This document shows, one piece after another, positions 17,801 to 56,727 of a stretch of 64,000 nucleotides of DNA. The position numbers and the translations under genes were made by a program. Each line of letters begins with the position of its first letter. The stretch's first letter is position 1. This DNA is from Phosphitispora fastidiosa (GTDB lineage: Bacteria; Bacillota; Thermincolia; Thermincolales; UBA2595). The stretch spans positions 43,603 through 107,602 of the forward strand of contig NZ_JAHHUL010000016.1 in the NCBI RefSeq assembly GCF_019008365.1. Direction: 5' to 3'. The notes beneath the pieces are model-generated. The model had not been told where the DNA came from, searched no databases, and was given only the letters and a program-made list of their open reading frames with translations.

Positions 17801-17914
17801 TGCCATAATTGCAGGCGTTGTGTGGACATCTGTCCGGCAGCAGCGATTACTCCGGATGAATGGGTGCGAGGAAGCCGTGGACGCGTACTGACAAAACAAG
17901 GAGGAGATTGGAAA
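17801..17914 (+). pseudogene. ferredoxin-like motif in frame with and upstream of mtaA
   Basis: Reading in the mtaA frame from 17801 gives CHNCRRCVDICPAAAI, a complete [4Fe-4S] ligand set (C-x2-C-x2-C-x3-C-P), continuing without a stop to the mtaA start. Upstream the frame is closed by TGA at 17798-17800 and TAA at 17747. No ATG precedes the motif; GTG at 17822 would split it. It lies downstream of the sigma-54 promoter, so it is transcribed. It may be the remnant of a ferredoxin domain or gene, or an extension of mtaA with an unusual start. Confidence 0.4.
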
Positions 17915-18934: not shown

Positions 18935-18956
18935 AAAATTAAAAGGAGGAATACAA

Positions 18957-19619: not shown

Positions 19620-19664
19620 ATTTCAGAAAACTGTACCCTTACGGTATATAGGGGGGGGAGCTGT

Positions 19665-20345: not shown

Positions 20346-20498
20346 ATGTGACAGTAAACGACAAAATAATTCAAAATTAATATCAAATTTATTTTATGGT
20401 ACTAGGCTAATTCGACACTGATTTTGGTTGGTTTTGTATTATAATTAATTTAGAGTAAAGATTATTATTTTAGATAAGGCAGGTACAGCATTTTTTCA

Positions 20499-22502: not shown

Positions 22503-22532
22503 GGACGGTTTTTTTGGAAAGGGGTAAAGATA

Positions 22533-23285: not shown

Positions 23286-23304
23286 GGCACCTTCCCTTTT
23301 TTTT
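23254..23304 (+). terminator. terminator overlapping the end of the MtaC-like gene
   Basis: GGGAAGG...CCTTCCC with inner CTCAG...CTGAG forms a long stem whose left arm lies inside the coding region, followed by eight T residues. Confidence 0.85.
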
Positions 23305-23306
23305 AG

Positions 23307-23458
23307 TGTTCTTTCGGTTGTAACAGTGTTTCATTTCGTAACACTTCTAAAAAAGGGGAGCGGGCCAACCTGTACAAGGTCGTTTTGGAGAATAGACAAG
23401 GTTACACGGAAAGTGTTGTTCTGCAATGGAACAATAACCGGTTATTGAACATGTTTCA
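23307..23458 (+). promoter_or_regulatory. palindromic activator sites upstream of mtaB
   Basis: Sites of the same form as those before mtaA: TGTTTC-ATTTC-GTAACA at 23327-23343 and TGTTCT-GCAAT-GGAACA at 23417-23433, 90 bases apart. The second is about 120 bases before the sigma-54 promoter, as at mtaA. A perfect palindrome AATAACCGGTTATT follows at 23433-23446. No gene is visible in 23305-23723. Confidence 0.62.
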
Positions 23459-23550
23459 GGGAACAGCCCCGGATGGACGCATATCATTGAAATCAGAGCC
23501 GTATTAAGGGATGTACCTGCTAAACAATATATTTTACTGCACTCCCGGTT

Positions 23551-23568
23551 TTGGCATGGTTATTGCTT
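23551..23568 (+). promoter_or_regulatory. sigma-54 (-24/-12) promoter of mtaBC
   Basis: TTGGCAT-GGTTA-TTGCTTT has GG and GC ten bases apart, close to consensus. It lies 156 bases before mtaB. Confidence 0.85.
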
Positions 23569-23723
23569 TATGTAATGTATAGATGCTTCTGGTGGAATTT
23601 TCACCGGATCAGTTATGCTCCGTTCCGGGAGGAGGTGTATCAGGTAACCCTATTATCCTTGTATTCTTTTAGCAGGTTGTTTAACGCCCAAGTAATTTAG
23701 TTAACAAAAGGAGGTTAGCAAGA

Positions 23724-25097
23724 ATGCCGAAATATGACAAAATGGCTTATGCAAGCGCTGATGAAATGATTTTTGGCTCAGCAAAGAATCCTGTGAAGTA
23801 CGGCCGTGATTTTACAGTCGGTGGAGGTTACGTTTATCCGGAGCTGGTGCCGCATCCCAGACCGGGCACGGAGTCCACGAAGAAAACCCTGGTTAAGGAA
23901 TATGAGAAAATGGTTACCGATGTGCTTGATCGTTGTGTGGGCATTGGTATCCCGGGAATTCAGATTGAGCTGGAGCATGTCTATCAAATGACCAAAAACC
24001 CGGAATGGGGCGGGGAAATTGCAGCTGCAACCAAACACCTGCAAGAGGATTATTTCCGCAAGTATGGGCTCAAGAGCGCTATCAGGGCAACTATTGCAGA
24101 CTACCGGAAGCCTGATGAGGAAGATATCAGAAGCAGTGTCGCCCTGGAAAACCAGTTAAAGACTTTTGAAACCAGCGCAGCAGGTGGAGCAGACAACCTC
24201 TCTATCGAATCTGTCGGTGGCAAGGAGATCTCAGACTATACCATTGTTCGGCAGGATATCCGGGGCACCCTCTTTGGGATAGGTGTTCTCGGGAGTCTGG
24301 ATATGGAGTTTATGTGGCAGAAAGTTGTTGACATTGCGAATAAGTACGGGGCTACTCCCGGTGGTGACACCAACTGCGCCCAGGCCAATGTGGCCATGTT
24401 TATGGCCGGAGGATACCAGGACCGGTCTGTTCCGCATACCTTTGCCGCTCTGACTAGGGCTATCGCGGCGGCACGTTCCCTGGTTGCCTACGAACAGGGA
24501 GCCAAAGGTCCAAGTAAGGATTGCGGTTATGAAGATGTTATTATCAAGTCCATTACCGGAAATCCCATATCAATGGAAGGGAAGACATGTGCCTGTGCCC
24601 ACAGCGACCTCCTGGGCAACCTGGTTGGAGCATGCTGTGACCTGTGGAGTAACGAGGCTGTTGAATACCATGATATGTTTGGCGGGACCACGGTGGCTGT
24701 GTTTGCTGAGATTCTCGGCTATGATGTGGCCCTCATGAATACCGCTATCGAACTCGGTAAGGCCAAGGATCTACAGGAAATGATGATTCATTCGGATAAG
24801 TACCGTGATACCCATGGTTTCATTCTTTGCCCGGAAAATGCATATCAGATTGGCAAGGCAATTGTTGCCAATAATACTTCCTACTATGCCAGGGCACGTG
24901 CCGCTGCTGTTAAGGCTGGCGAACTGATGCTCGGTGACAGTAAACTGCAGATATCCGCATTTGAAAAAGAATCGCTGGAATCAGCCATGCGTACCCTGGA
25001 AAGCCTTCCTGACAAAGAGGAAGACTTCATCAGTGAATGTACCGACATTTACAAGAAACTTATTCCTGGTTTTACTCTGGCCAATTATGGTCTGTAA
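23724..25097 (+). CDS. mtaB: methanol:corrinoid protein Co-methyltransferase MtaB
   Basis: This 457-residue zinc enzyme splits the C-O bond of methanol and transfers the methyl group to the cobalt of MtaC. Glu162 (SIESVGG), Cys218 (GGDTNCAQ) and Cys267 (SKDCGY) have the same spacing as the zinc ligands Glu164, Cys220 and Cys269 that I recall for Methanosarcina barkeri MtaB. Length is close to the family's. AAAGGAGGTT precedes the start. mtaC follows after 40 bases, and a sigma-54 promoter drives both. This is the strongest evidence that the organism uses methanol. Confidence 0.95.
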   Translation: MPKYDKMAYASADEMIFGSAKNPVKYGRDFTVGGGYVYPELVPHPRPGTESTKKTLVKEYEKMVTDVLDRCVGIGIPGIQIELEHVYQMTKNPEWGGEIAAATKHLQEDYFRKYGLKSAIRATIADYRKPDEEDIRSSVALENQLKTFETSAAGGADNLSIESVGGKEISDYTIVRQDIRGTLFGIGVLGSLDMEFMWQKVVDIANKYGATPGGDTNCAQANVAMFMAGGYQDRSVPHTFAALTRAIAAARSLVAYEQGAKGPSKDCGYEDVIIKSITGNPISMEGKTCACAHSDLLGNLVGACCDLWSNEAVEYHDMFGGTTVAVFAEILGYDVALMNTAIELGKAKDLQEMMIHSDKYRDTHGFILCPENAYQIGKAIVANNTSYYARARAAAVKAGELMLGDSKLQISAFEKESLESAMRTLESLPDKEEDFISECTDIYKKLIPGFTLANYGL

Positions 25098-25137
25098 ACC
25101 GTTGGGAAGAATGTCATAAATTAAAGGAGGGACAAAG

Positions 25138-25887
25138 ATGGCAACAGTGGCAAGTTATGCAAATATCTTTGCAAGATATGACCTCATTGGCTCGGGAGAG
25201 GCCAAAGGGGCAAAGGTTTCAAGCAAGGACTCCGCAATGCAGAAGGTTTTGGAATGTGTTCTGGAAGGGGACAGTGATAACATCACCGCTGTCGTGAATG
25301 AGGCATTGGCATCTAAAGATCCAATGACAGTTATCAATGATGGTCTGATTAGAGGCATGAATGAAGTCAGTAGATTATGGGATGAGGGGGAATATTACCT
25401 TCCTCAGGCTATTGTGGCATCTGATGCCATGCTTAAAGGATTGGATATCTGTGAGAAAAAACTGGGTAAGGCCCTGGAGAAGAAGGGTACTGTAATTACC
25501 CATACTGCTGAAGGAGATATTCATGACCTGGGACAGAAAATTGTGAATGCACTCCTCAGGGCCAATGGCTATAATGTTGTGGACCTGGGCAAAGACGTTC
25601 CTGTTGACGATGTGGTTGCGGCAATCAAGGAGCATAAACCGGTGATGGTAACCGGGACAGCCCTGATGACAACCACCATGACTGCATTTGAAAGGATTTC
25701 CAAGCGCCTGGTTAAAGACAATAATCCCATACCGTTTGTCTGCGGCGGCGGCGCGGTATCGCTGGAATATGTGACCGGTTATGAACTGGGGGTATTTGGC
25801 AAGGATGCTTCAGAGGCCCCCGGAATGGCCAATGACGCTGTAAATGGCTTGAGTTGGACCGAGTTAAGAGAGAAATGGAACAATTAA
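25138..25887 (+). CDS. mtaC: methanol corrinoid protein MtaC
   Basis: A 249-residue corrinoid protein with helical cap and B12 domain, carrying AEGDIHDLGQKIVNALLR (cobalt-binding His) and the glycine loop CGGGAVS. It is the direct neighbour and expected partner of MtaB. TAAAGGAGGG precedes the ATG. MtaC shuttles methyl groups to MtaA. It closely resembles the copy at 22533, which suggests duplication within this island. Confidence 0.95.
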   Translation: MATVASYANIFARYDLIGSGEAKGAKVSSKDSAMQKVLECVLEGDSDNITAVVNEALASKDPMTVINDGLIRGMNEVSRLWDEGEYYLPQAIVASDAMLKGLDICEKKLGKALEKKGTVITHTAEGDIHDLGQKIVNALLRANGYNVVDLGKDVPVDDVVAAIKEHKPVMVTGTALMTTTMTAFERISKRLVKDNNPIPFVCGGGAVSLEYVTGYELGVFGKDASEAPGMANDAVNGLSWTELREKWNN

Positions 25888-25900
25888 TCACAGGTTGATG

Positions 25901-25992
25901 GATGGATGGTTGATTAATGGCTGATCGATGATTGATTACTGGCTGATTACTGGCTGATGCTGACCCGGGCTTGTGTATCCAGGCCCGGGTCA
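25901..25992 (+). repeat. short tandem repeats and strong hairpin after mtaC
   Basis: A run of GATT/GGCTGAT-type short repeats (GGAT three times, then GATTACTGGCT twice in tandem at 25931-25952) precedes a perfect ten-pair stem TGACCCGGGC/GCCCGGGTCA at 25961-25992 with a 12-base loop. There is no T-run, so it may attenuate, protect the mtaBC 3' end, or weakly terminate. Confidence 0.6.
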
Positions 25993-26032
25993 GTATTCCA
26001 ATAAGTCAAACTACGGCAACGAGGGGAGTCTG

Positions 26033-26950
26033 ATGATGAAAATTGACGTAATTAATGGACTGCTGGGATCAGGTAAAACGACATTTTTGTTAAATCTGCT
26101 GGAACAGAAGGACCTTTCGGAAAAAACTGCGGTTTTGGTAAACGAATTCGGGGAAATTGGCATTGACGGTGATATCCTCAGCGGACATGGAGCTACTGTG
26201 GTGGAACTCCCCAATGGATGCATTTGCTGTACCCTGACTGCCGACCTGCGCAGCCAGGTAAAGGAGATTGCCGAAAACTTTGCTCCTGACCGGCTGCTTA
26301 TTGAACCAACCGGTATTGCTACCATAAAGAATTTACTGGGCATTCTGAACAGCCTGAGTCTTGAAAAATACATTGAAGAGATCCGGGTTATGATGGTGAT
26401 AGATGCCGCCAATTTTCGGGAAATCGCTGCTCAAAACCGTGCTTTTGTGGAAAATCAGCTTAAGGCTGCACACACTATTATCATAAACAAATGTGACCGT
26501 GTAGATGCCGGTGAAATCAGCTGGATAACAGGCTTTATCAGAGAAATAAACAGAGCGGCGGGGATTTTGCTGACTATCCACGGGAGGGTTATGGGAAGAG
26601 ATTCAGCCCAGGCTGGAGCTTTAATTACTGAAGAACCCTTCACCCAGCTTCTTCCGGAAATGCCCCTGAAGGAGTACGAGCAGTTCAGTACCTCCGGCAG
26701 CGGTATTTTTAACCTGACAAAGCTGAGAGACCTGTTCGCGGAAATAAACCGCAACACTTTTGGGCTTGTTGACAGAGTAAAAGGTGTTTTTCAGGTTGCC
26801 GATGATGAATGGGTGCGCTTGGACCTGGCGTCACGTGAAATTGCAGAAGTGGAGCTGGAAAAGGGTTTAGCGTCCAGCAAGATTATAGTAATTGGTACGG
26901 ACCTCCGGAAGGATTTGCTCAAGGAAGAGATTTGGAAATGCCAGTTCTGA
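26033..26950 (+). CDS. CobW/P47K-family GTPase (metal or cofactor chaperone)
   Basis: A 305-residue P-loop GTPase starting MMKIDVING with GLLGSGKTT (Walker A), the metal-binding C-x-C-C motif in GCICCTL, IEPTG, and NKCD for guanine specificity. COG0523 members deliver metals such as Zn or Co, or support cofactor enzymes. Its place between mtaC and the corrinoid activase suggests a role in zinc loading of MtaA/MtaB or in corrinoid maturation; this is inference. The start at 26033 follows GAGGGGAG; an upstream in-frame ATG would include the hairpin and is unlikely. Confidence 0.85.
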   Translation: MMKIDVINGLLGSGKTTFLLNLLEQKDLSEKTAVLVNEFGEIGIDGDILSGHGATVVELPNGCICCTLTADLRSQVKEIAENFAPDRLLIEPTGIATIKNLLGILNSLSLEKYIEEIRVMMVIDAANFREIAAQNRAFVENQLKAAHTIIINKCDRVDAGEISWITGFIREINRAAGILLTIHGRVMGRDSAQAGALITEEPFTQLLPEMPLKEYEQFSTSGSGIFNLTKLRDLFAEINRNTFGLVDRVKGVFQVADDEWVRLDLASREIAEVELEKGLASSKIIVIGTDLRKDLLKEEIWKCQF

Positions 26951-26997
26951 AAATTGACAGACAAATAAGGTAAAACTGCCAAATAGGGAGTGGTAAT

Positions 26998-28632
26998 ATG
27001 GTTCAAACAGGTATCGCGCTTGATTTGGGAACCAGCGGCTTCCGAGGACAGGCCGTTGATCTGGAAAGAAAAGAAATCATTGCAACTGTGCTTACTGCTA
27101 GGCATCCTCTGCCAGGGGCAAATGTCATGGACCATCTGAACTTTGCCATCGAAGCCGGACTGGAAACAGCCCATGGTGTGGTAATTGAGACAGTTAACCA
27201 GGTTATCAGTACCCTGGGCATACCAACAGAAGACATAAAAAGAGTGGCTGTATGTGGAAACCCCATACAGTTATCATTGTTTGAAGGAATTGAAATTAGG
27301 GACCTGGCATATGCGGGTGAGCGCAAAAAGAAGCTGTTGGGAATTGTGCCGCCCAACAGGGATGCTAAAAAGCTGGCAGCTTCCGATATTGCCGGTCTGT
27401 TGCTGCCATCCGGTGTGGAAGTATACATTCCCGCGGCAGTAAAGCACGAAATAGGGGCTGACGCCCTGGCCATGATGGTTCAATCAGGACTGCTGGAAAA
27501 CAGTGATACTGCATTGGTTACCGATTATGGAACAAATGCTGAAATGGCGCTTAAAATAGGAGATAGGATAATTACGGGTTCCTGCGCGGCCGGACCGGCT
27601 TTGGAAGGACAGCATATTGAATTCGGAATGCTGGCGGCCCCGGGAGCCGTTCATGATATAGAAGCCGAAAAGGTTGGCTTTAGGTGTTATGTCCTGAACG
27701 AGAATATGCTCAGTGAACCGGGAGACCTGGTGGATATAACGGCAGGGACCGTTCTGGAAAAAGGAGCGGTAGGTGTTGCCGGAATTACGGGGACCGGTGT
27801 CATTTCAATTCTTTATGAGGGCATGGCCGCAAACCTTATTCGGCTTCCCCAAATCAAAACACCGCAGAAGAAAATACATCTGGGAAGAGATGTTGATTTT
27901 AATGAGCATGACATTATCGAAGCCGGTAAAGCAATAGGAGCAATCAGGGCTGGGTTTATCACCCTGGCAGCAGAGGCCGGGATAGAGCTGGAGGACATTA
28001 AGACCGCCTATATGGCCGGCGCTTCCGGAACTTATGTAAATGCGGGTAAGGCCCTGCAGGTTGGACTGGTGCCTCCGGGAGCCCAAAAAATCTATCAGGT
28101 TGGCAATACCTCACTGGCCATGGCCCGGGACATCGTGCTGGCTCCGCAGAAACTTTGGGATTTACAGGACCTGGCACGGGCCCTCAGGGCTAACCATTGT
28201 ATGTTTGGGGAATCCCAGGTCTTTGAACGGGCGTATCTGCTGGAATTATCCCTTTGGGGTGAAGGCATGCCCTGGGAACAGTATCATAAATTCAGCAGGA
28301 TGTATAAGCTGCCGCGTTTGATTGAACCATACGGAAAGCCTGAAATTATCAGGCTCTATGAACGAGACATCCCGGATTTGGGATACCGCGGAGTGTCCTA
28401 TATAGATATAGTCGGAAAACAGTGCCAGATACAGTTTGAAGGCTGTACCGGGTGCGGCGCCTGTGTGGCAAAGTGTCCTGAAAAAGCACTGCAGCTATTG
28501 TCGGAACAGCAGGGGATAATATTGATCAGGCCTGACAGGTGCAACGGCACTGCCTGCAAGAGATGTGAAATAAGCTGCCCGCAAAAGGTCTTTGAGTTCG
28601 CCTTGATTCCTTTCAGTCCTAAAGGCTGCTAA
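26998..28632 (+). CDS. corrinoid protein reductive activase, RamA/RACo-type
   Basis: A 544-residue ASKHA-type ATPase that uses ATP to reduce inactive Co(II) corrinoid back to Co(I). It opens with the phosphate-binding DLGTSGFRG, continues with DYGTNAEM, GPALEG and GASGTYVNAG, and ends with two [4Fe-4S] motifs, CTGCGACVAKCP and CNGTACKRCEISCP. Acetogen RACo proteins usually carry an N-terminal [2Fe-2S] domain; here that is absent and the C-terminal ferredoxin is the RamA arrangement. The cluster context (mtaA, mtaB, mtaC) fits well. A terminator follows. Confidence 0.9.
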   Translation: MVQTGIALDLGTSGFRGQAVDLERKEIIATVLTARHPLPGANVMDHLNFAIEAGLETAHGVVIETVNQVISTLGIPTEDIKRVAVCGNPIQLSLFEGIEIRDLAYAGERKKKLLGIVPPNRDAKKLAASDIAGLLLPSGVEVYIPAAVKHEIGADALAMMVQSGLLENSDTALVTDYGTNAEMALKIGDRIITGSCAAGPALEGQHIEFGMLAAPGAVHDIEAEKVGFRCYVLNENMLSEPGDLVDITAGTVLEKGAVGVAGITGTGVISILYEGMAANLIRLPQIKTPQKKIHLGRDVDFNEHDIIEAGKAIGAIRAGFITLAAEAGIELEDIKTAYMAGASGTYVNAGKALQVGLVPPGAQKIYQVGNTSLAMARDIVLAPQKLWDLQDLARALRANHCMFGESQVFERAYLLELSLWGEGMPWEQYHKFSRMYKLPRLIEPYGKPEIIRLYERDIPDLGYRGVSYIDIVGKQCQIQFEGCTGCGACVAKCPEKALQLLSEQQGIILIRPDRCNGTACKRCEISCPQKVFEFALIPFSPKGC

Positions 28633-48834: not shown

Positions 48835-49728
48835 ATGGAAAGCAATGACATTGAAGAAGGCGTATCAAAACAAAGCCTGCTGGGGACAGGTCTCGTTATT
48901 GTTTCTGCCGCCAGTTTTGGCTTGATGGCGATATTTGTAAAGTATGCTTATGCTGTTAATTTAAATATATTAACCCTCCTCAGCCTTCGCTTCGCCACTG
49001 CCGCAGCGGTTATGTGGCTGATAGTGCTGTGGCGCAAAGAAAATTACCGGATTGGCAGAAAACAGGTATTATATCTGGCCGGCATTGGTGCTGTTGCCTA
49101 TGGGCTGCAGTCAACGTTCTTCTTTAATGCGGTCAGGCTTACCTCGGCATCAATGGCAGGAATACTTTTATACCTGTACCCGGTTATTGTTACTTTGATA
49201 TCAGCCGGATTGGGTGATGAGAAGTTCACCTGGAGGAAGATGGTATCGTTATTTGTCAGCTTGAGCGGATTGGTATTGGTTGTGGGACTGTCGCTGGAAA
49301 ACCTGAATATGGCCGGTGTCCTGTTTGGACTGGGAGCGGCGGTTGTCTATTCTGTTTATCTGATTGTGGGAAACCGTGTTTTATCACAAAATAACCCCCT
49401 GATAGTATCAGTATATATTATAACTGCAGCAGCGCTGGTATTTAATATTATCGGTTGGACCACAGGTCAGGTTGAACTGGATATCGGTTTAAGAGGCTGG
49501 ATATCCATCTTAGGACTGTCCCTTGTTTCAACAGTTGTGGCAATTCTGACTCTCTTTAAGGGGATGAAGCTGGTCGGGCCTTCGAAAGCTTCTATTATCA
49601 GCACCTTTGAGCCGGTAGTAACAGTAGTGGTAGCTTATGTCATCTTTGGTGAAAACCTGCTGCCGATCCAGCTTGCCGGGGGTGTTCTGATCCTGGCAGC
49701 CGTACTTATGATTCAGTGGGATGGCTGA
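48835..49728 (+). CDS. EamA/DMT family transporter (RhaT/YdcZ-like)
   Basis: A 297-residue ten-segment permease in two EamA halves, with SAASFGLMAIFVKYAY at the start, ALRFATAAAV-type SLRFATAAAVMW, and the second-half motif VVAILTLFKGMKLVGPSKASIISTFEPV. Members export metabolites such as amino acids; the substrate is open. GGAGAAGTG precedes the start. Followed by a terminator. Confidence 0.87.
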   Translation: MESNDIEEGVSKQSLLGTGLVIVSAASFGLMAIFVKYAYAVNLNILTLLSLRFATAAAVMWLIVLWRKENYRIGRKQVLYLAGIGAVAYGLQSTFFFNAVRLTSASMAGILLYLYPVIVTLISAGLGDEKFTWRKMVSLFVSLSGLVLVVGLSLENLNMAGVLFGLGAAVVYSVYLIVGNRVLSQNNPLIVSVYIITAAALVFNIIGWTTGQVELDIGLRGWISILGLSLVSTVVAILTLFKGMKLVGPSKASIISTFEPVVTVVVAYVIFGENLLPIQLAGGVLILAAVLMIQWDG

Positions 49729-49752
49729 GATGGGAGAAACATCAAAATATTT

Positions 49753-49782
49753 GGGAGGGAGCGCTAATGCTCCTTCTTTTTT
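49753..49782 (+). terminator. terminator after the DMT transporter gene
   Basis: GGAGC and GCTCC around GCTAAT, extended by flanking A/G-C/T pairs, then TTCTTTTTT. Confidence 0.75.
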
Positions 49783-49783
49783 G

Positions 49784-49812
49784 TTGACAAAATAACTTTA
49801 ACCATATATGAT
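49784..49812 (+). promoter_or_regulatory. sigma-A promoter of the SLAC1/TehA-like gene
   Basis: TTGACA and TATGAT spaced 17 bases apart, 62 bases before the GTG start. Confidence 0.7.
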
Positions 49813-49873
49813 ATAAAAAAAGACTCATATAAACATAAACTCATATATAAGCATTAACAAAGGAGGTAAAATA

Positions 49874-50824
49874 GTGGAAAAAGGAATGCGGTATTTTCCA
49901 GTTGGATTGTTTGCCAGCGTAATGGGACTTTGTGGCTTATCGATTGCTTACCAACGCTATGAAGAGGTTTTTCATTTAAGGCTCGGCATAGGTTTTCCTC
50001 TGCTGTTGTTAGCTTATGTTGTATTCATTGTTGTTACAGGTGCCTACCTTTTGAAATTGGTTAAATATTTTCCCGATGTGGTAAATGAATTTAACCACCC
50101 TGTTAAAGCCAACTTCTTCCCAGCCTTTTCGATAAGCCTCCTGTTATTGAGCATCGGAACGATGGATTATCAACAAACTGCAGCTCATTATCTTTGGTTA
50201 GTTGGGGCCACAGTACATATATTATTTACTATTGTTATCATTTCCCGATGGATTAACCATAAATACGAATTAGTTCAATCTAATCCTGCATGGTTTATAC
50301 CGGTGGTGGGTAACCTGATAGTTCCAATAGCGGGGGTAAATTTCGCTCATCACGAAATATGCTGGTTCTTCTTCAGCCTTGGTTTATTCTTTTGGATTAT
50401 TTTATTTACTGTAATCTTCTACAGAATCATTTTTAATGAGCAGCTGCCTCAACAAATACTGCCTACTTTGTTTATTTTAATTGCACCACCTGCGGTAGCT
50501 TTTATTTCTTATACCAAATTAACAGGTCAAATTGACAGCTTTGCCCGTGTATTACTTTATGTTGCCTGGTTTTTTGTAATTTTGCTCTTATCGATGGCCA
50601 GAAACTTCGTAAAGATAAATTTCTTTGTATCCTGGTGGGCCTATACATTTCCTTTGTGTGCAGTTACTATTGCCAGTACCCTGGCATACAAAATGCTTAA
50701 AGTGCAGATGTTCGGCTGGGTAGCTACAGGTTTATTGGCGTTAACTTCCATAGTAGTTTTTACGGTATTATTCAGAACATTATCTGCATTTAAACAAAAT
50801 AAAGTCTGTGTTCGTGATATGTAA
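49874..50824 (+). CDS. SLAC1/TehA family permease (tellurite resistance/C4-dicarboxylate type)
   Basis: A 316-residue protein with ten hydrophobic segments, opening with PVGLFASVMGLCGLSIAYQRY, which matches the F-x-x-x-M-G-x-x-G-L first segment of TehA/SLAC1 anion channels, and carrying the central WFIPVVGNLIVPIAG. TehA is linked to tellurite resistance. It stands 350 bases before the selenoprotein operon, which makes a metalloid-anion role attractive but unproven. GTG start behind AAAGGAGGT. More AT-rich than its neighbours. Confidence 0.82.
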   Translation: MEKGMRYFPVGLFASVMGLCGLSIAYQRYEEVFHLRLGIGFPLLLLAYVVFIVVTGAYLLKLVKYFPDVVNEFNHPVKANFFPAFSISLLLLSIGTMDYQQTAAHYLWLVGATVHILFTIVIISRWINHKYELVQSNPAWFIPVVGNLIVPIAGVNFAHHEICWFFFSLGLFFWIILFTVIFYRIIFNEQLPQQILPTLFILIAPPAVAFISYTKLTGQIDSFARVLLYVAWFFVILLLSMARNFVKINFFVSWWAYTFPLCAVTIASTLAYKMLKVQMFGWVATGLLALTSIVVFTVLFRTLSAFKQNKVCVRDM

Positions 50825-51171
50825 AGACAGCAAATCATCGTGAAACCGTTCGCCGCCAAATTATATTCTTGACGGTTCCAGAAGTCCGTTAGACCACTTG
50901 AAACGATCATTCAGAGAATACTATTTTGAGAATGACAAGTTGAAATGCTACTATATGTATAGACTAATGGTAATAGTTATATGAATTAATGGCAAGACGT
51001 GGAAAGTAATTTGAAAGCGCTGTGATAGAATTCGAGGATTGCTAAAAGAGCAATGAATATCTTTCGCAGCGCTCTTATTATATAAGGGAGTTTATTAATA
51101 ACGGAGGTGATTAATAAGTTTAGATGCAATTCCTTGGTTGCTAAATTAATTATTTAGAGGGGGAATTATTA
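50825..51171 (+). other. 347-base leader region of the selenoprotein operon
   Basis: No reading frame of note. It holds a nested RNA hairpin (51017-51072), a fully consensus ribosome-site sequence CGGAGGTGATT at 51102-51112 that is 60 bases ahead of the first real start and faces only a six-codon frame (MQFLGC), and a second site GAGGGGGAA just before the start at 51172. No sigma-54 or clear sigma-A promoter was found; the transcript may start within the AT-rich stretch 50930-51000. Confidence 0.5.
51017..51072 (+). ncRNA. nested hairpin, possible leader RNA or attenuator
   Basis: Outer stem GCGCTGTGA (51017-51025) with TCGCAGCGC (51064-51072), nine pairs with one G-U; inner stem TTGCT (51039-51043) with AGCAA (51049-51053). 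It is followed by TCTTATTATAT, so it could terminate transcription from the permease gene or act as a conditional element for the selenoprotein operon. No known riboswitch class was recognised. Confidence 0.45.
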
Positions 51172-51843
51172 ATGGCATCTCCAGAAAGAGAAAAAGAGTT
51201 GTTTGCGGTTTTGAAACAGGGGGTTATAGATTATGACGAGGATGCGGTAAGAGAAGCCGCCCGGAATGCAGTTGATGAAGGCATTGATGCTTATACAGCA
51301 GTATTTGAAGGTCTTGTTGAAGGAATGAACGAAGTTGGGAGGCTGTACGAAGAGCAGGAGTATTTTGTGCCCGAGATATTAATGTGTGCCGATGCCTTGT
51401 ACGCCGGACTGGAGATTCTGAGACCCCATATTGCGAAAAAGGATATGGGTCTCAAAGGTACAGTTGTAATGGGGGTTGTGCAGGGCGATGTTCATGACAT
51501 TGGCAAAAACATTGTTAAGATGATGTTTGATGTGGCCGGGTTTGATGTTCATGACCTTGGTCGGGATGTTCCACTGGAAAAATTTGTTGCAGAACAATTG
51601 GAGACCGATTCCGAACTGGTTTGTCTTTCTGCCATGATGACTACAACTATGGTAGGGATGAAAGACGTCATAGCCAGAATTAAGGAGAAAAACCCTAACT
51701 GTAAGATTATGATAGGTGGCGCTCCAGTCTCCGAAGACCTTGCCGATAAATGGGGAGCTGACGGTTTTGCTAAAGATGCCAACAACGCGTTGAAAGAAGC
51801 GCTGCAAATGGTGGCTTCTTTAAAAGATATGAAAAAAAGCTAA
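51172..51843 (+). CDS. corrinoid (B12-binding) methyl-carrier protein of the selenoprotein operon
   Basis: A 223-residue corrinoid protein: helical cap (1-90), then the B12 domain with GDVHDIGKNIVKMMFDVAG (cobalt ligand His108), LSAMMTTTMVGM and GGAPV. It is closest in this window to the copy at 18957, sharing long identical blocks, and is less like MtaC. It heads a run of genes on the plus strand with short gaps (31 bases to the next start) that also contains a UroD-type methyltransferase, so it most likely carries an alkyl group between an unknown donor and that enzyme. No substrate-specific MtxB gene is present. Confidence 0.9.
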   Translation: MASPEREKELFAVLKQGVIDYDEDAVREAARNAVDEGIDAYTAVFEGLVEGMNEVGRLYEEQEYFVPEILMCADALYAGLEILRPHIAKKDMGLKGTVVMGVVQGDVHDIGKNIVKMMFDVAGFDVHDLGRDVPLEKFVAEQLETDSELVCLSAMMTTTMVGMKDVIARIKEKNPNCKIMIGGAPVSEDLADKWGADGFAKDANNALKEALQMVASLKDMKKS

Positions 51844-51874
51844 CGCACAATAAGTATGGTCAGAGGTGAACAGA

Positions 51875-53104
51875 ATGTCAACATCAGAAGTTAGGCTTGC
51901 CGTAGTTCACAGCGGAGATCCCAACTGAAGACCGTGTGAAATGGCGCTGGAAGCTGCCAAAAAAATCAAAGAGAAATTTGGTGAACTAATCTTCCTCGAA
52001 GAATATCTGACTGATTCGGATGAGGGCAGAGCATTTAATGTTACGACATCTTCAAATATTTTCGTCAATGGTCAACTTGTGGCTATGGGTATATGGCTGG
52101 ATCAGGACAAGTTCACCAAGTACATTCAGGAAATCGTTGGCGAAACCAAACAAATAAAAAAAGATGTGGTCAGGCATGCAGGCTATGATGTGGTTATTAT
52201 CGGCGGCGGACCTGCCGGATTAACTGCGGGAATCTATTGTGCCCGGGCCAGACTCAAAACCGTATTGTTAGACGGGGCCGGTCTTGGCGGACAGGTTATG
52301 ACCACTGACAACATCGAAAATTATCCGGGATTTGTGGGTGCTGGCAGCGGGGAGCTAATTAAAAATATGGAAGGGCAGGCCAGAAGGTTCGGGCTGGAAA
52401 TACAAACATTCAAAAGGGTTAACCAAATACAGTTAACCGGATCGGACAAAGAAGTTCGTGCCGGTGATGAAATCTATTCAGCCAAGGCTGTAATTCTAGC
52501 CACCGGACTCAAGACTGCTGAACTGGGTATTCCCAGGGAAACGGAACTCAGGGGTCAAGGGGTATCTTACTGTGCAGTCTGTGATGCCAATTACTTTATT
52601 GGTAAAAGAGTTGCCGTTGTTGGCGGAGGGGATACCGCAGTTGAGGAAGCCCTTTATTTGTCCAAGTTTGCTTCTCAGGTTTATTTAATCCACAGGCGCA
52701 ATGAGCTGCGCGCAGCTAAAATACTCCAGGAGACAGCCTTTCAAAACGAAAAGATCAGCTTTTTACTCAGTCACATTATCCAAGGCTTGGTTGGCAGCAA
52801 CTTCCTTGAAGGGGTTAAGGTGCAGAATTTAGAAACAGGAGACACCTCCCGACTTGAGGTGGATGGTCTGTTTATTGCAATAGGCTCTCGGCCTCACACC
52901 TCCTTTTTGAAGGATATTGTTGCTTTGGACGAGCATGGGCACGTGATAGTTAATGATAAAATGCAAACTTCGGTTCCCGGTATTTATGCTGCAGGAGATA
53001 TAAGGGTTACGCCCCTCAGACAGGTATCCACGGCAGTTGGAGACGGAGCAATCGCTGCCATTTCCGCTGAAAGGTACATAACCGAAAACAGAAAGGAGGA
53101 GTAG
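51875..53104 (+). CDS. selenoprotein: Sec-containing thioredoxin-like domain fused to thioredoxin reductase
   Basis: With the TGA at 51926-51928 read as Sec, the frame opens MSTSEVRLAVVHSGDPN-Sec-RPC (Sec18, Cys21), a thioredoxin-fold active site of form Sec-x-x-Cys. That domain spans about 100 residues and is followed by a complete NADPH-thioredoxin-reductase: FAD motif GGGPAGLTAGIY, redox motif CAVCD, NADPH motif GGGDTAVEEA and the C-terminal GIYAAGDIR. Total 409 residues. Without Sec the call would start at 51941 and lose the whole active site. A hairpin with a GGA loop lies 20 bases after the UGA. The ATG follows AGAGGTGAA, 31 bases after the corrinoid gene. It probably supplies electrons to the selenol or metal-binding proteins next door. 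Confidence 0.85.
51942..51959 (+). promoter_or_regulatory. SECIS-like hairpin behind the UGA at 51926
   Basis: TGGC-GCT-GGA-AGC-T-GCCA: seven pairs, a single bulged U and a GGA loop about 20 bases after the UGA. Bulged U plus GG-containing loop is what bacterial SelB-type elements show, although here the bulge is on the 3' arm. It lies within the coding sequence, as expected in bacteria. Confidence 0.6.
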
Positions 53105-53105
53105 T

Positions 53106-53324
53106 ATGGCTGCAGAGATAAAAATGACCAAACTCCAGATTATTGCCAATACCGGCAACTGAATACCTATTATCAAGCTGGCCCTGTTAGGGGCAGAAGG
53201 TGTTGATAACGCAGAAGTTGACATGCAATTTGCTACTATCTGGCATGACCCGGAAAAGGTAACCGTTGAAAAGTTAGTAGATATAGTTACTAGAGCGGGA
53301 AAAGATTGTTTTCCGGTGGCGTAA
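53106..53324 (+). CDS. small ferredoxin-fold (HMA-like) selenoprotein with one Sec
   Basis: Read through the TGA at 53160-53162 this gives 72 residues: TKLQIIANTGN-Sec-IPIIKLALLGAEGVDNAEV and on to IVTRAGKDCFPVA. The layout (strand, loop bearing the reactive residue, helix, A-E-G-V-x-x-A-E-V, strand, helix) matches a heavy-metal-associated fold, with Sec19 in the metal-binding loop and no CxxC pair; a second thiol, Cys68, is near the C-terminus. AAGGAGG precedes the ATG, which is one base after the reductase stop. The frame on both sides of the TGA is consistent in codon use and structure. Standard annotation would miss it. Confidence 0.8.
53178..53196 (+). promoter_or_regulatory. SECIS-like hairpin behind the UGA at 53160
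   Basis: CTG-G-CCCT-GTT-AGGG-G-CAG: seven pairs with one G-G mismatch and a GUU loop, 23 bases after the UGA. Position and loop fit a bacterial SECIS. Confidence 0.55.
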
Positions 53325-53384
53325 GCCGACATTAAAGCAACAATGATTAAATATTACGGGGATAAACCAAAAAGGAGGGTAATT

Positions 53385-54434
53385 ATGAAAATTCCAGAAG
53401 ACAGAATGACTCCTAAGGAAAGAATTGGTTCATTACTGCAGGGCAAACCAATTGACCGTGTGCCTTGCGTTCCGGTAATCTTGAATGGCTGCTGTACCGC
53501 AGCCGGGTATACGGTTAAAGAAATGACTCTCGATGGTGAGAAGTTTGGCAAGGCCAATGTAGCCACTTACAGGAAGTACGGATATGACATGATATGCCTT
53601 CTTGATGCTACAGCAACGACCGCTGAAGCCGCCGGAACAAAATTGTGTTACCCCGACAACGCTCCGGCTTATGTTGAAGACCCTTTAATAAAGTCTGTAG
53701 ATGATGTGAAAAAACTGCGGCCATTAGACCCGACAAAGGATGGAAGGCTTAATAATTACCTGGTAGCAACGGAATATTGTGTTTCTGAAGTTGGCAGCGA
53801 AGTATTTGTAGGCACTTTATTTGCCGGACCTTTCACAACTGCAGCTTGCTTGAGAGGTACTGAGACTCTTGTTAGGGACTGTTACAAAAACAAGGATTTG
53901 GTGCACCAACTTGTAAGATGGTCTACTGATGTCACCATCGTGTTTTTGGAGGAGGTAATAAAACGGGGTGGTGTTCCGGTCCTTTGTGAACCGGTGGGTA
54001 CAGGCAGCATCCTTAGTCTGAAAATGTTTACTGAATATATTGAACCCTACTTTAAAGAAATTCATGAATTCATTAAATCTAAAGGTTTACCCGTGTTAGA
54101 CCATATCTGTGGTGACTGTATGCCTATCCTGGAATCCTGGATGCGAACCGAACCGACAGTTCTAAGTGTTGACAGGGTAGATATTGGTGAAGTATCACAG
54201 CGTGTGGGTGACAGAGTAGGAGTTATGGGAAATGTTACTCCTGGTAAAACACTGTTCATGGGTACCCCTGAAAGTGTAGACGCCGAGGTTAAAGAAGTTA
54301 TGGACAAGGCTGGTAAAAACCCATGCGGCTTTGTATTGGCATCCGGCTGTGAGGTTCCGGTGGGAACACCTCCGGAAAATATTACTGCCATGATGAATGC
54401 TGCCAGAAAATACGGGCAGCACCCATTAACTTAG
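53385..54434 (+). CDS. UroD-family corrinoid methyltransferase (MtaA/MtbA-like)
   Basis: A 349-residue protein starting MKIPEDRMTPKERIGSLLQG behind AAAGGAGGG. It has the zinc pattern of cobamide methyltransferases: His240 and Cys242 in LDHICGD, and Cys322 in ASGCEVP. It is related to but clearly distinct from MtaA at 17915, with extra cysteines in the N-terminal third (VPCVP, GCC). Between selenoprotein genes and after a corrinoid protein, it probably transfers a methyl group to or from that corrinoid. Whether the other substrate is a thiol, folate or an organometal cannot be read. Confidence 0.87.
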   Translation: MKIPEDRMTPKERIGSLLQGKPIDRVPCVPVILNGCCTAAGYTVKEMTLDGEKFGKANVATYRKYGYDMICLLDATATTAEAAGTKLCYPDNAPAYVEDPLIKSVDDVKKLRPLDPTKDGRLNNYLVATEYCVSEVGSEVFVGTLFAGPFTTAACLRGTETLVRDCYKNKDLVHQLVRWSTDVTIVFLEEVIKRGGVPVLCEPVGTGSILSLKMFTEYIEPYFKEIHEFIKSKGLPVLDHICGDCMPILESWMRTEPTVLSVDRVDIGEVSQRVGDRVGVMGNVTPGKTLFMGTPESVDAEVKEVMDKAGKNPCGFVLASGCEVPVGTPPENITAMMNAARKYGQHPLT

Positions 54435-54472
54435 AATAGGGCATCAGATAATTTAAGAAAAGGGGTGCAGGT

Positions 54473-54706
54473 ATGGACAATGAGATTAAAAAAGTCGTTA
54501 TAAAGATTCCCAGTATGACCTGAACGTCTTGAGCGGCCATGGTCGATGCGGCCCTGGAGGGGTCCGCCGGAGTTAAGAGTTATGAAACCACTCTGGCAAA
54601 TCAACAAACAGTTGTTAAGTTTGATAAAAGCCAGATTGATGAAGAAACCCTGATGAATAACATCAAAAAATTAACCGGTTATAACAATCTCTATCTAAAA
54701 GAGTAA
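54473..54706 (+). CDS. selenoprotein: HMA-domain metal chaperone with Sec-x-x-Sec
   Basis: Read through two TGAs (54521-54523 and 54530-54532) this is a complete 77-residue HMA domain: KKVVIKIPSMT-Sec-TS-Sec-AAMVDAALEG, then GVKSYETTLANQQTVVKF and the terminal helix. In MerP, CopZ and related proteins the loop is MTCxxC; both metal-binding cysteines are UGA here, giving Sec17 and Sec20. Everything else that defines the fold is intact and uninterrupted, which argues against a pseudogene. AAAGGGGTG precedes the ATG. It would bind a soft metal ion (Hg, Cu, As, Ag or similar) through two selenols. Confidence 0.85.
54535..54561 (+). promoter_or_regulatory. two overlapping SECIS-like hairpins for the double-Sec gene
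   Basis: GGC-CAT-GGTCG-ATG-(bulge)-GCC has a GGUC loop starting 17 bases after the first UGA. CCC-TGGA-GGG follows, its loop starting 22 bases after the second UGA. Each UGA thus has its own hairpin at the expected distance, although the two cannot be formed together fully. Confidence 0.5.
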
Positions 54707-54724
54707 TAACTTTTACTGTTTAAC

Positions 54725-54762
54725 AAAAGCTCGGACTGTTGGGTCAAACGGTCCGGGCTTTT
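54725..54762 (+). terminator. terminator of the selenoprotein operon
   Basis: AAAAGCTCGGAC pairs with GTCCGGGCTTTT, one mismatch, 14-base loop. The U-tract is short. Confidence 0.7.
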
Positions 54763-54780
54763 GGGTTAAAAGGCTGTTGC

Positions 54781-54835
54781 CTAAATATATAAATATATTT
54801 AGGTGGTACATATTGACAAAACGATACAAAAGATA
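54781..54835 (+). promoter_or_regulatory. operator and promoter of the ArsR-type gene
   Basis: A 22-base palindrome CTAAATATAT-AA-ATATATTTAG (54781-54802), with the AT-rich arms typical of ArsR/SmtB sites, lies just before TTGACA (54813-54818), with TATAAT 15 bases or TAATAT 17 bases further on. Confidence 0.65.
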
Positions 54836-54921
54836 TAATATATCAGTAAACACACATATGGGTGGATATTCATATGAAAGCACATAAATATTTCAATTCG
54901 CTGATACTTGAGGTGATTCTT

Positions 54922-55275
54922 ATGATACAGGCAGAAAGTGACATGCTAAAGATGCTTGCCAAATTCATGAAGACAATTGGTGATGCCAACAGATTAAAAA
55001 TAATTTGGGTGATAGGGAAAGAAGAACGTTCAGTATCGGAGATTATCAACGAAACAGACCTTTCACAAACACTGGTGTCTTTTCATTTGAAAATTTTGCG
55101 TGAGTCAGACATTGTTGAGACAAAGCGACTTGGAGCTTTTATCTATTACAGTCTGGGGAACCCTGAATTAATAGACCTTCTTTCTGCTTGTGGGGAATAC
55201 GTTTATAAAAACACAGGTGAAATAGAACCTGGTTTTGTCTGGCCATTTCCCCTGTGGTTTAATAAAAAATCTTGA
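54922..55275 (+). CDS. ArsR family transcriptional regulator
   Basis: A 117-residue winged-helix repressor: FMKTIGDANRLKIIWVI, SVSEIINETDLSQTLVSFHLKILRESDIVETKR and IYYSLG are the family's helices and wing. The classic metal-binding CVC of ArsR is absent; the only cysteine is in LSACGEY. It therefore may sense something other than free metal ions or use other ligands. ATG 54922 is preceded by GAGGTGATT; an upstream in-frame GTG would overlap a CATATG repeat. It follows the selenoprotein operon and has an operator-like palindrome. Confidence 0.87.
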   Translation: MIQAESDMLKMLAKFMKTIGDANRLKIIWVIGKEERSVSEIINETDLSQTLVSFHLKILRESDIVETKRLGAFIYYSLGNPELIDLLSACGEYVYKNTGEIEPGFVWPFPLWFNKKS

Positions 55276-55322
55276 CAAAGCGAAATCAAGTTATCATAAA
55301 AATAATTAAGGAGGGATTTGAT

Positions 55323-55556
55323 ATGATGGGTAAAATGTCAGAAATGATGGGGAAGATGGGACCAATGTGTGGACCTATGGGCGGCGGTCCGGCAATGATG
55401 AAAAAGGGAATGGCAATGAGGGAACAGGGAATGGCGATGATGCAGGAAATGATGAGCGCAGGTTCAGACCCAATGGAAGTATGCCGGAAAATGTTTGCGG
55501 AAGCTTCAAAAGTTGAAAGTAATGCTGAATCAAATGGGAAAAGCAGTGGTGGCTGA
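55323..55556 (+). CDS. methionine-rich small protein
   Basis: A 77-residue protein with 19 methionines, mostly in the first 57 residues as repeated M-M, G-x-M and E-M-M groups (MMGKMSEMMGKMGPMCGPM), plus two cysteines and a Ser/Gly/Asn tail. Met-rich sequences of this kind bind soft metals such as Cu(I), Ag or Hg. No signal peptide, so cytoplasmic. AAGGAGGG precedes the ATG. It lies after the ArsR gene, in the same direction. The amphipathic central helix could also be structural only. Confidence 0.7.
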   Translation: MMGKMSEMMGKMGPMCGPMGGGPAMMKKGMAMREQGMAMMQEMMSAGSDPMEVCRKMFAEASKVESNAESNGKSSGG

Positions 55557-55626
55557 GGCTAATTGAGACTGTTTTGGAAAAACAGAAAAGTATTCAATGA
55601 CATTCTGTGCAAAGGAGGGTAGTAAG

Positions 55627-55905
55627 ATGATGAGAATGATGGGGGAAATGCGCCGGCAGAACTTTGGGATGGGGTTCCAACAGATGGCATCTCCCGCAGC
55701 TAAAGCTGCAGAAATTGGCAGCAATGCTACTCCCGAGGTTAGGGCGCTATTTGAAGACTGGGCACAGGAAGTTGAAAAGGAAATACTATCTTTAATCAAA
55801 AAGGATAATAAACTTGATTCGGGTGCGATTGCCAAAAAATTGGGAATCAGTGAAGAAAGTGCAGTCTTCTTTATGAATCGAATTGAGCAAAAAGAAACAA
55901 GTTAA
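55627..55905 (+). CDS. small Met-rich/helix-turn-helix-like protein
   Basis: A 92-residue protein. The N-terminal 24 residues are Met-rich (MMRMMGEMRRQNFGMGFQQM) like the previous gene; the rest resembles an ArsR- or MarR-like half helix-turn-helix (ALFEDWAQEVEKEILSLIKK, then AIAKKLGISEESAVFFMNRI). AAAGGAGGG precedes the ATG, 70 bases after its neighbour. It looks like a partner of the Met-rich protein and the regulator. Not recognised as a family. Confidence 0.65.
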   Translation: MMRMMGEMRRQNFGMGFQQMASPAAKAAEIGSNATPEVRALFEDWAQEVEKEILSLIKKDNKLDSGAIAKKLGISEESAVFFMNRIEQKETS

Positions 55906-56016
55906 GGCAGTTTGTATTACCAGATATTGTTTTCCGGGTACTGGCACCACCTCACCTTTTCCAGCATATAATTTAAAGTGATGACTTAAAAAATGAATCG
56001 GGGGTGGGGTTATTAA

Positions 56017-56721
56017 ATGGTACCGGAACTTGCGGTGCTAGCCGCTTTTTCGTTTATTAAAGGGTTGTTGTTACTGGTCTCCTACATCACCAACAACACT
56101 TTTCCACAGCCCTTAAGTGAGGAAGAGGAGTCAAAGTATCTTGACCTGTTGGCAGAGGGTGATGAGCATGCGCGGAATGTCCTGACAGAGCGTAACCTGC
56201 GTCTGGTGGCACATATCGTCAAAAAGTTTGACAGCACAGGGGAGGACAATGATGACCTGATATCCATCGGTACCATAGGCCTGATTAAGGCCATAAACAC
56301 CTACGACAAGGGCAAGGGAACCCGTCTGGCAACTTATGCTGCGCGGTGTATTGAAAATGAAATCCTAATGCATTTGAGAGCCATTAAGAAAAACCGCGTT
56401 GAGGTCTCACTCTATGATTCCATAGGAGTTGACAAGGAAGGCAATGAAATTAGTCTGATTGATGTACTGGGCACTGACGCGGAAGTTGTGACAGACCTTG
56501 TTGAAAGTAACTTTGAACAGCAGAGATTGATTGAAAAGGTATTGCGGCTGAACAAGAGAGAAAAAAATGTACTGCAGCTGCGGTTCGGACTGTTTAACGG
56601 CATCAAGAAGACGCAGAAGGAAATCGCCCGGAAACTGGGTATTTCCAGGTCTTATGTAAGCAGAATAGAGAAAAGGGCTTTGAACAAGCTGACAAAAGAA
56701 TTTAAGGCTGAAGGGTATTAG
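56017..56721 (+). CDS. sigK: RNA polymerase sporulation sigma factor, SigK-like
   Basis: A 234-residue sigma-70 family factor: hydrophobic N-terminal pro-like sequence ([16 protein letters not shown]), region 2 with [19 protein letters not shown] and [11 protein letters not shown], and region 4 with [16 protein letters not shown] and [22 protein letters not shown]. These features match mother-cell sigma-K with its cleavable leader. The gene is uninterrupted, without the skin element of Bacillus subtilis. Sigma-E or sigma-G are less likely because of the leader and region-2 sequence. Confidence 0.9.
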
Positions 56722-56727
56722 AAAAGG

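What the first reader, a model, noticed from the sequence alone, without database searches (positions are those of the whole stretch)
51172..54706. Compact operon joining a corrinoid protein, a UroD-type methyltransferase and three selenoproteins
Five genes lie head to tail with gaps of at most 60 bases: corrinoid protein, Sec-thioredoxin-reductase fusion, small one-Sec protein, methyltransferase, and an HMA domain with two Sec. Four in-frame UGA codons in three genes fall exactly where a reactive or metal-binding cysteine is expected. Corrinoid plus UroD-type enzyme means alkyl transfer; HMA plus reductase means soft-metal handling and thiol/selenol reduction. Together they suggest a pathway that strips or transfers methyl groups on an organometal(loid) (methyl-Hg, methyl-As, organotin or similar) while selenols hold the metal. 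I recall that NCBI curators proposed a 'selenocysteine-assisted organometallic' metabolism with Sec thioredoxin-like and Uxx-star proteins; whether this corrinoid-linked form belongs to it I could not check.
Basis: partly seen in the sequence, partly recalled or inferred. Interest (0 to 1): 0.95.

Follow-up and report, generated by a model that had tools for sequence, protein, structure and literature searches.

The report
Selenoprotein-flanked corrinoid methyltransferase island
A Thermincola-related bacterium carries a 6.2-kb gene segment, missing from a close relative, in which a vitamin-B12-type methyltransferase gene sits between genes for two small HMA-like proteins whose key positions are UGA codons, likely read as selenocysteine, and the set would move methyl groups on a soft metal, metalloid or selenium compound.

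Summary
The core, one-Sec HMA-like gene / UroD-type methyltransferase / two-Sec HMA gene, recurs in this order in four loci from at least three phyla (all found through the methyltransferase); 17 of 17 Sec positions are TGA. One protein search showed no Cys version. The TsoX-thioredoxin-reductase fusion is in three loci. The corrinoid gene is adjacent in two of four loci and was apparently recruited separately in each. A congener lacks the whole 6,187-bp segment. The methyltransferase forms its own clade on the Mlp2 (methyl-selenide) side of its family, with a His-Cys-Cys zinc site; an ArsR-type gene is beside the core in three of four loci. I favour a movable, selenocysteine-dependent corrinoid methyl-transfer module for a soft metal(loid); methyl-selenium is the main rival and the substrate is unresolved. 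It shares TsoX with the published Tso system but no TsoB was found, and it is not a type-1 mlp cluster. The paper defining Tso was not held, so novelty against it is unchecked.

The parts
49730..55916 (.). 6,187-bp segment absent from a same-genus genome, where the two flanking stretches are directly joined
   Evidence: (window 48868-49729 matches L179 2792-1931; window 55917-56726 matches L179 1930-1121); GC 41.7% against 45.3% and 46.2% beside it
49874..50824 (+). TehA/SLAC1-type transporter in the segment; no homologue found in L014-L017
   Evidence: tdt 177.6 bits, below cut-off 237.25; SLAC1 197.7
51172..51843 (+). corrinoid protein (methyltransferase-cognate type)
   Evidence: B12-binding and B12-binding_2 over cut-off; TIGR02370 201.8, cut-off 215.3; 85-87% identical to two other corrinoid proteins of the same genome
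51875..53104 (+). TsoX (predicted Sec, HSGDPNURPC) fused to thioredoxin reductase (CAVC)
   Evidence: TsoX 104.1 bits (cut-off 52), TRX_reduct 365.6 (343.45); aligned
51926..51928 (+). UGA, predicted Sec of TsoX
53106..53324 (+). small HMA-like protein with one predicted Sec at the second Cys position (TxxU)
53160..53162 (+). UGA, predicted Sec of the small HMA-like protein
53180..53194 (+). candidate SECIS hairpin (weak evidence)
53385..54434 (+). UroD-superfamily methyltransferase, predicted zinc ligands H240, C242, C322
   Evidence: URO-D 246.7; PRK06252 160.7, below cut-off 244
54473..54706 (+). HMA protein with two predicted Sec (MTUTSU)
   Evidence: (HMA 43.9, cut-off 24.8)
54521..54532 (+). 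two UGA codons at the metal-binding Cys positions (54521 and 54530)
54550..54564 (+). candidate SECIS hairpin (weak evidence)
54724..54763 (+). terminator-like inverted repeat after the five-gene set
54874..55275 (+). ArsR/SmtB regulator, best model TsoR (77.5 bits, below cut-off 115)
55323..55556 (+). Met-rich small protein, no family match of note
55627..55905 (+). protein like the C-terminal half of TsoA (53.7 bits, below cut-off 170), no UGA

Best explanation
A 6.2-kb segment that a congener lacks carries a UroD-type methyltransferase gene between genes for two HMA-like proteins with one and two in-frame UGA codons, predicted to be read as selenocysteine, and it likely encodes a corrinoid methyl-transfer system that would take methyl groups off a soft metal or metalloid. 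Proposed steps, all inferred: the one-Sec HMA-like protein (a single soft ligand) would hold the methylated metal(loid); the zinc methyltransferase would pass the methyl group to cob(I) of the corrinoid protein; the freed ion would be taken by the two-Sec HMA protein, which offers two ligands; the TsoX-thioredoxin reductase would keep the selenols reduced with NADPH; the ArsR-type regulator would sense the metal(loid); methyl-corrinoid would feed a folate methyl pool; and a corrinoid reactivase encoded elsewhere would repair Co(II). The direction could be the reverse (methylation).
For: Core order small-MT-HMA in 4 of 4 loci readable on both sides (window, L015, L016, L017), and MT-HMA in L014, whose contig starts just before the MT. 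17 of 17 Sec positions TGA. A 12-row MT clade, SH-aLRT 100, holds all five of these MTs and seven metagenome proteins; the next loci, L018-L031, have a corrinoid gene beside the MT in 14 of 14 and a second UroD gene in 11 of 14, and no homologue of the Sec proteins. Corrinoid genes of window and L015 are each closer to corrinoids of their own lineage (85-87% in the same genome; 79% to L050) than to each other (63%). One-Sec protein modelled as an HMA fold (pLDDT 86.6; best PDB match MerP 1osd, TM 0.88), Sec at the second Cys position. The two-Sec HMA proteins score highest for the MerTP or UxxU metal-binding models, though below their cut-offs. ArsR proteins with TsoR as best equivalog, below cut-off, beside the core in 3 of 4 loci. 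Reactivase domain (RACo_C_ter) in 4 of 4 hosts searched.
Against: No substrate evidence. The nearest tested relative acts on selenide (PMC10418091) and is 35% identical. Corrinoid gene not found in the stretches L016 and L017. TsoX not found in two of five host genomes (in one the contig ends there). All loci were found through the MT, so the core's constancy is conditional on it. ArsR and HMA fit copper or general soft-metal handling too. Window and L014 HMA differ by 3 synonymous and 5 amino-acid changes, which alone shows no purifying selection. From memory, methylcobalamin gives its methyl group to Hg(II) readily, which favours the reverse direction for mercury.
Confidence: 0.45

Rival explanations
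1. A methyl-selenium system: the methyltransferase demethylates methyl-selenol or dimethylselenide to corrinoid, as proposed for SdmABC and type-1 mlp clusters, and the Sec proteins carry or reduce selenium.
For: The MT lies on the Mlp2 side of a quick tree and is 35% identical to the protein at the Mlp2 position of the C. ljungdahlii cluster against 26% for the Mlp3 position; it has the His-Cys-Cys site that PMC10418091 links to S/Se substrates; ClMlp2 methylates selenide; selA is in 5 of 5 hosts.
Against: A scavenging system that needs four Sec residues could hardly serve selenium starvation, whereas SdmABC-like genes rise on selenium depletion. No second UroD MT here. HMA proteins and an ArsR regulator are left unexplained. 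The MT is closer to another C. ljungdahlii paralogue (41%).
Confidence: 0.28
2. The selenolate of the one-Sec protein is itself the methyl acceptor or donor: the MT moves methyl between corrinoid and protein-bound Sec, a protein replacement for coenzyme M.
For: The one-Sec gene is directly upstream of the MT in 4 of 4 loci; the solved relative 4ay7 is a methylcobalamin:coenzyme M methyltransferase; no second MT gene is in the segment.
Against: No example known to me; the Sec sits on an HMA-type loop and may not reach the zinc; no complex was modelled.
Confidence: 0.12
3. A general selenol redox and copper/soft-metal buffering operon in which the methyltransferase is a passenger.
For: HMA, TsoX-TrxR and ArsR all fit redox or metal buffering. 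The loci were found through the MT, so sets of the two Sec HMA genes without it would have been missed.
Against: The MT lies between the two HMA-like genes in four of four loci across at least three phyla; corrinoid genes appear to have been added twice.
Confidence: 0.12
4. Decayed genes: the UGA codons are ordinary stop mutations.
For: None found.
Against: 17 of 17 positions TGA in five loci, conserved sequence after them, selA/selB/tRNA-Sec in the own genome.
Confidence: 0.01

Closest known systems
Tso (three-selenoprotein operon) system: TsoX NF045809, TsoR NF045707, TsoA NF045695
   Same: TsoX domain over cut-off; an ArsR protein and a TsoA-like protein in the same segment; L016 has a TsoA-like protein with a UGA (102 bits, cut-off 170) and a DsrE-like protein with a UGA.
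   Different: TsoX is fused to TrxR; no TsoB over cut-off in 5 genomes; TsoA-like and TsoR-like scores are below cut-off; the MT and two HMA-like Sec proteins are the core. The defining paper (Haft and Tolstoy 2025) was not held and not read.
Type-1 mlp gene clusters / SdmABC (PMC10418091, PMC11097638)
   Same: MtbA-like UroD MT on the Mlp2 side with His-Cys-Cys site; corrinoid protein.
   Different: One MT only, no Mlp3, no reactivase in the segment, three predicted selenoproteins.
SAO selenocysteine-assisted organometallic system
   Same: Several selenoproteins with a proposed organometal role (named in PMC13188914, passages seen).
   Different: No Sao family among the matches printed for the nine proteins; not searched genome-wide.
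HgcAB mercury methylation
   Same: Corrinoid chemistry on a soft metal is the proposed analogy.
   Different: The corrinoid protein here is of the methyltransferase-cognate type; HgcA is over cut-off in 2 of 5 hosts and not in the own genome.
MerP/CopZ HMA metallochaperones
   Same: HMA fold and motif position.
   Different: UxxU and TxxU in place of CxxC; no signal peptide apparent to the eye (no predictor was run).

Membership tests
Tso system | TsoX domain over NCBIfam cut-off | tested here: met
   104.1 bits, cut-off 52
Tso system | TsoA selenoprotein (LULAXC) | tested here: not met
   53.7 bits for the C-terminal half, cut-off 170, no UGA; only the nine proteins around the operon were scanned
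Tso system | TsoB | tested here: not met
   0 of 5 genomes over cut-off 805; own best 109.6
Tso system | TsoC | not tested
Tso system | TsoR regulator | tested here: inconclusive
   best equivalog in window, L016 and L017 with 77.5, 80.3 and 75.2 bits, all below cut-off 115
Type-1 mlp cluster | at least an Mlp2 and an Mlp3 gene | tested here: not met
   one UroD gene in the segment; definition
Type-1 mlp cluster | corrinoid protein in the cluster | tested here: met
   51172-51843
Type-1 mlp cluster | Ram/RACE activase in the cluster | tested here: not met
   in the window the only RACo_C_ter match lies in another corrinoid cluster, 26998-28632
UroD-superfamily corrinoid methyltransferase | His-Cys-Cys zinc ligands | tested here: met
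   H240, C242, C322 in 12 of 12 clade rows
Selenoprotein | in-frame UGA at a Cys position, conserved, with Sec machinery | tested here: met
   17 of 17 TGA, selA 5 of 5, selB own genome, tRNA-Sec 4 of 5
Selenoprotein | selenium in the protein | not testable with these tools
   needs 75Se or mass spectrometry
SAO system | Sao families in the operon | tested here: not met
   none among the matches printed for 9 proteins (for the fusion only the best 25 of 126 are printed)

The most novel reading that the evidence does not exclude
A mobile, selenocysteine-obligate organometal methyltransferase: one-Sec and two-Sec HMA proteins are paired docking partners that deliver the methylated and receive the demethylated soft metal(loid) to and from a corrinoid methyltransferase, the first corrinoid route for a metal substrate with dedicated selenoprotein carriers.
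Probability: 0.25. Interest if true: 0.9.

Novelty: new variant of a known kind. Interest (0 to 1): 0.72.

Why it matters
Selenoprotein families proposed for organometal chemistry have, as far as I know, no assigned reaction. Here a gene for an assayable enzyme, a methyltransferase, sits inside the selenoprotein set, so the substrate question becomes a bench test. If the metal reading holds, it is an anaerobic route for cleaving or making methyl-metal bonds outside MerB and HgcAB. If the methyl-selenium reading holds, it shows selenoproteins working in methyl-selenide metabolism.

Tried and rejected
Decay by stop mutation: rejected. Viral contigs: 20 pattern matches, none a relative. Plasmids: 15 records, best 36% identity. 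TsoX in the own phylum: 7 of 398 genomes match, 1 (own) over cut-off. MT in the phylum of G400: 1 of 395, G400 itself, at E up to 1e-100. Rfam scan of the window at gathering scores: 0 matches. HgcA link: over cut-off in 2 of 5 hosts. Structure of the TsoX-TrxR fusion: I folded it without an alignment, and the model is useless (mean pLDDT 32.9). Promoter scan: 11 sites against 10.4 expected, no weight given; terminator scan 10 against 4.3. TsoX protein search: 1 hit, 88% identical, starting after the UGA. The full-length homologue P0124 has Trp at the Sec position; I take it for a UGA read as Trp by the source, which I could not check. Calling L150 the published C. ljungdahlii cluster rests on gene order given, not on accessions. 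The trees are quick ones without bootstrap and with long-branch warnings (the Mlp1-position row among them).
Full report
What is there. The five genes and four in-frame UGA codons are real and at the stated coordinates. With the likeliest starts the gaps are 31, 1, 60 and 38 bases. NCBIfam names the second gene a TsoX (104.1 bits, cut-off 52) fused to thioredoxin reductase (365.6, cut-off 343.45). The first gene is a methyltransferase-cognate corrinoid protein (Pfam B12-binding domains over cut-off; TIGR02370 201.8 bits, just below its cut-off of 215.3). The fourth is a UroD-superfamily methyltransferase (Pfam URO-D 246.7 bits; NCBIfam models below their cut-offs), the fifth an HMA protein. 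The third is also HMA-like: AlphaFold2 gives beta-alpha-beta-beta-alpha-beta with mean pLDDT 86.6, and Foldseek's best PDB match is MerP (1osd, TM 0.88). Counting back from the shared ALxG motif, its Sec lies at the second Cys position of CxxC, with Thr at the first. So the set offers a one-ligand (TxxU) and a two-ligand (UxxU) HMA-type protein.

Selenocysteine. The own genome has selB (365 bits), selA (642 bits) and a tRNA-Sec match of 75.5 bits. selA is over cut-off in 5 of 5 host genomes. A tRNA-Sec match of 72-76 bits is in 4 of 5; in the fifth, the Syntrophaceae MAG, the best is 42.4 against 47. That search also rings on ordinary tRNAs, in 14 of 14 control genomes, so only the top hits count. 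In five loci 17 of 17 Sec positions are TGA. A search of about 5.8 billion proteins with the one-Sec family gave 11 hits: one full-length with Trp at the Sec position, six that start after it, and four with an ordinary HMA domain; of the ten I printed none is a Cys version of the ANTxNU motif (the eleventh, P0133, was not printed). The search reaches only relatives sharing short words, so this is not proof of absence. A hairpin starting at base 21, counted from the U of the UGA, is shared by nine sequences: 88.9% of cells pair (7/500 shuffles as high), but the number of pairs with double changes (189/500) and of pair types (436/500) is unremarkable. It overlaps the ALEG coding motif. I treat it as weak.

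Conservation. A scan of one genome per species with an alignment of the methyltransferase found 328 relatives, of which the best 80 were kept. Four have at least 58% identity: a Thermincola ferriacetica MAG (L014, 98%), a Syntrophaceae MAG (L015, 77%), a Deltaproteobacteria MAG (L016, 74%) and a Thermoleophilia MAG (L017, 58%). Read with UGA as Sec, L015, L016 and L017 have one-Sec gene, methyltransferase, two-Sec HMA gene in this order, as the window does; L014 begins just before the methyltransferase and has the HMA gene. The TsoX-TrxR fusion with UGA is in window, L015 and L016; TsoX was not found in the other two host genomes. In the 76 other loci, 48% identity and below, the script showed no TsoX, one-Sec gene or UGA-bearing HMA above 25 bits; some of these stretches are short. 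In L018-L031 a corrinoid gene is beside the methyltransferase in 14 of 14 and a second UroD gene in 11 of 14. A protein search shows the same gap: 16 further proteins at 76-80% (and one fragment), then 58-59%. All these loci were found through the methyltransferase; Sec HMA pairs without it would have been missed.

Corrinoid gene. It is upstream in the window, downstream in L015, and not found in the stretches L016 and L017. The window's corrinoid protein is 85-87% identical to two others in the same genome but 63% to that of L015, whose nearest row is 79% identical and from another MAG (L050). So corrinoid genes seem to have been placed beside the core separately in the two lineages; the tree is a quick one and the order of events is inferred. 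This supports corrinoid-dependent methyl transfer, and it corrects the picture of a fixed five-gene set.

A movable segment. In a same-genus genome (G097) the stretch left of the segment (window 48868-49729) is joined directly to the sigma-factor gene on its right (55917-56726). Two genomes of other genera of the family (G161, G186) also show no match to the segment beside that gene. The T. ferriacetica MAG shares its right part. The 6,187 bp hold the TehA-like transporter, the five genes, an ArsR regulator, a Met-rich protein and a TsoA-like protein. GC is 41.7% against 45.3% and 46.2% beside it. With TsoX over cut-off in only 1 of 398 genomes of the phylum and near relatives in other phyla, gain is likelier than loss; donor and mechanism are unknown.

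Function. The methyltransferase keeps the zinc ligands His-Cys-Cys (H240, C242, C322) and falls in a clade of 12 rows (SH-aLRT 100) on the side of a quick tree that also holds the protein at the Mlp2 position of the C. ljungdahlii cluster. It is 35% identical to that and 26% to the Mlp3 position, but 41% to another C. ljungdahlii paralogue. In PMC10418091 (abstract, whole Results section and some other passages seen) ClMlp2 moves methyl from methylcobalamin to selenide, and such clusters are proposed for methyl-selenium metabolism. PMC11097638 (passages seen) reports SdmABC-like genes raised on selenium depletion. That makes methyl-selenium the main rival. I rank a soft metal(loid) first for three reasons: two HMA-type proteins flank the methyltransferase; an ArsR protein whose best equivalog model is TsoR, below its cut-off, is beside the core in three of four loci; and a system needing four Sec residues is a poor tool for finding selenium when it is scarce. 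All catalytic steps are inferred. HgcA is over cut-off in 2 of 5 hosts and not in the own genome, so the module does not depend on HgcAB. A corrinoid reactivase domain is present in 4 of 4 hosts searched.

What is known. The review PMC13188914 (passages seen) lists TsoA, TsoB, TsoC, TsoX, TsoY, SaoC, SaoL and a UxxU metal-binding selenoprotein and describes Tso and SAO operons. It cites Haft and Tolstoy 2025 and Haft and Gwadz 2023, neither held here. Of PMC12013277 and PMC11588087 I saw only the results of term finds. Searches on TsoX and related names, on Thermincola with selenoprotein, and on selenoprotein with corrinoid, MerP or methylmercury terms showed no title on this arrangement in the lists returned, which are capped. 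By tested features it shares TsoX with Tso but no TsoB was found, and it is not a type-1 mlp cluster, which needs Mlp2 and Mlp3. I call it a new variant that joins elements of both.

Noticed in passing
window 17822-28632: A second corrinoid methyl-transfer cluster: an MtaA/CmuA-like MT, two corrinoid proteins (18957, 19665), a regulator, further corrinoid genes (22533, 25138), an MtaB-like protein at 23724 and a CobW-like GTPase at 25973 (both named by eye, recalled), and a corrinoid reactivase (26998-28632).
   Followed up: partly
L017:9202-9579: ArsR-type regulator beside the core with an in-frame UGA (VYYUL) where the window and L016 proteins have Ser or Arg; Sec or a changed Arg codon, not resolved.
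   Followed up: partly
L017:11391-11621: AhpD-like protein with a CQRU motif (UGA) after the two-Sec HMA gene; weak matches, below cut-off, to arsenic-linked selenoprotein fusions.
   Followed up: partly
L016:5651-6547: TsoA-like protein with UGA (HUIAEC, 102 bits) and DsrE-like protein with UGA (VGVUPPC) upstream of the TsoX-TrxR fusion.
   Followed up: partly
L015:7935-8861: CobW-family GTPase (108.6 bits, below cut-off 332) between the TsoX-TrxR fusion and the one-Sec gene.
   Followed up: partly
G400:C382:3-569 (L153): TsoB-like fragment with two TGA at a contig end (274 bits, below cut-off) in the genome of L016, which may also hold a Tso system proper.
   Followed up: no
P0009 and P0125: An MT homologue and a one-Sec homologue that starts after the UGA both list a longest contig of 6,644 bases from the same source, likely one further copy of the pair.
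   Followed up: no
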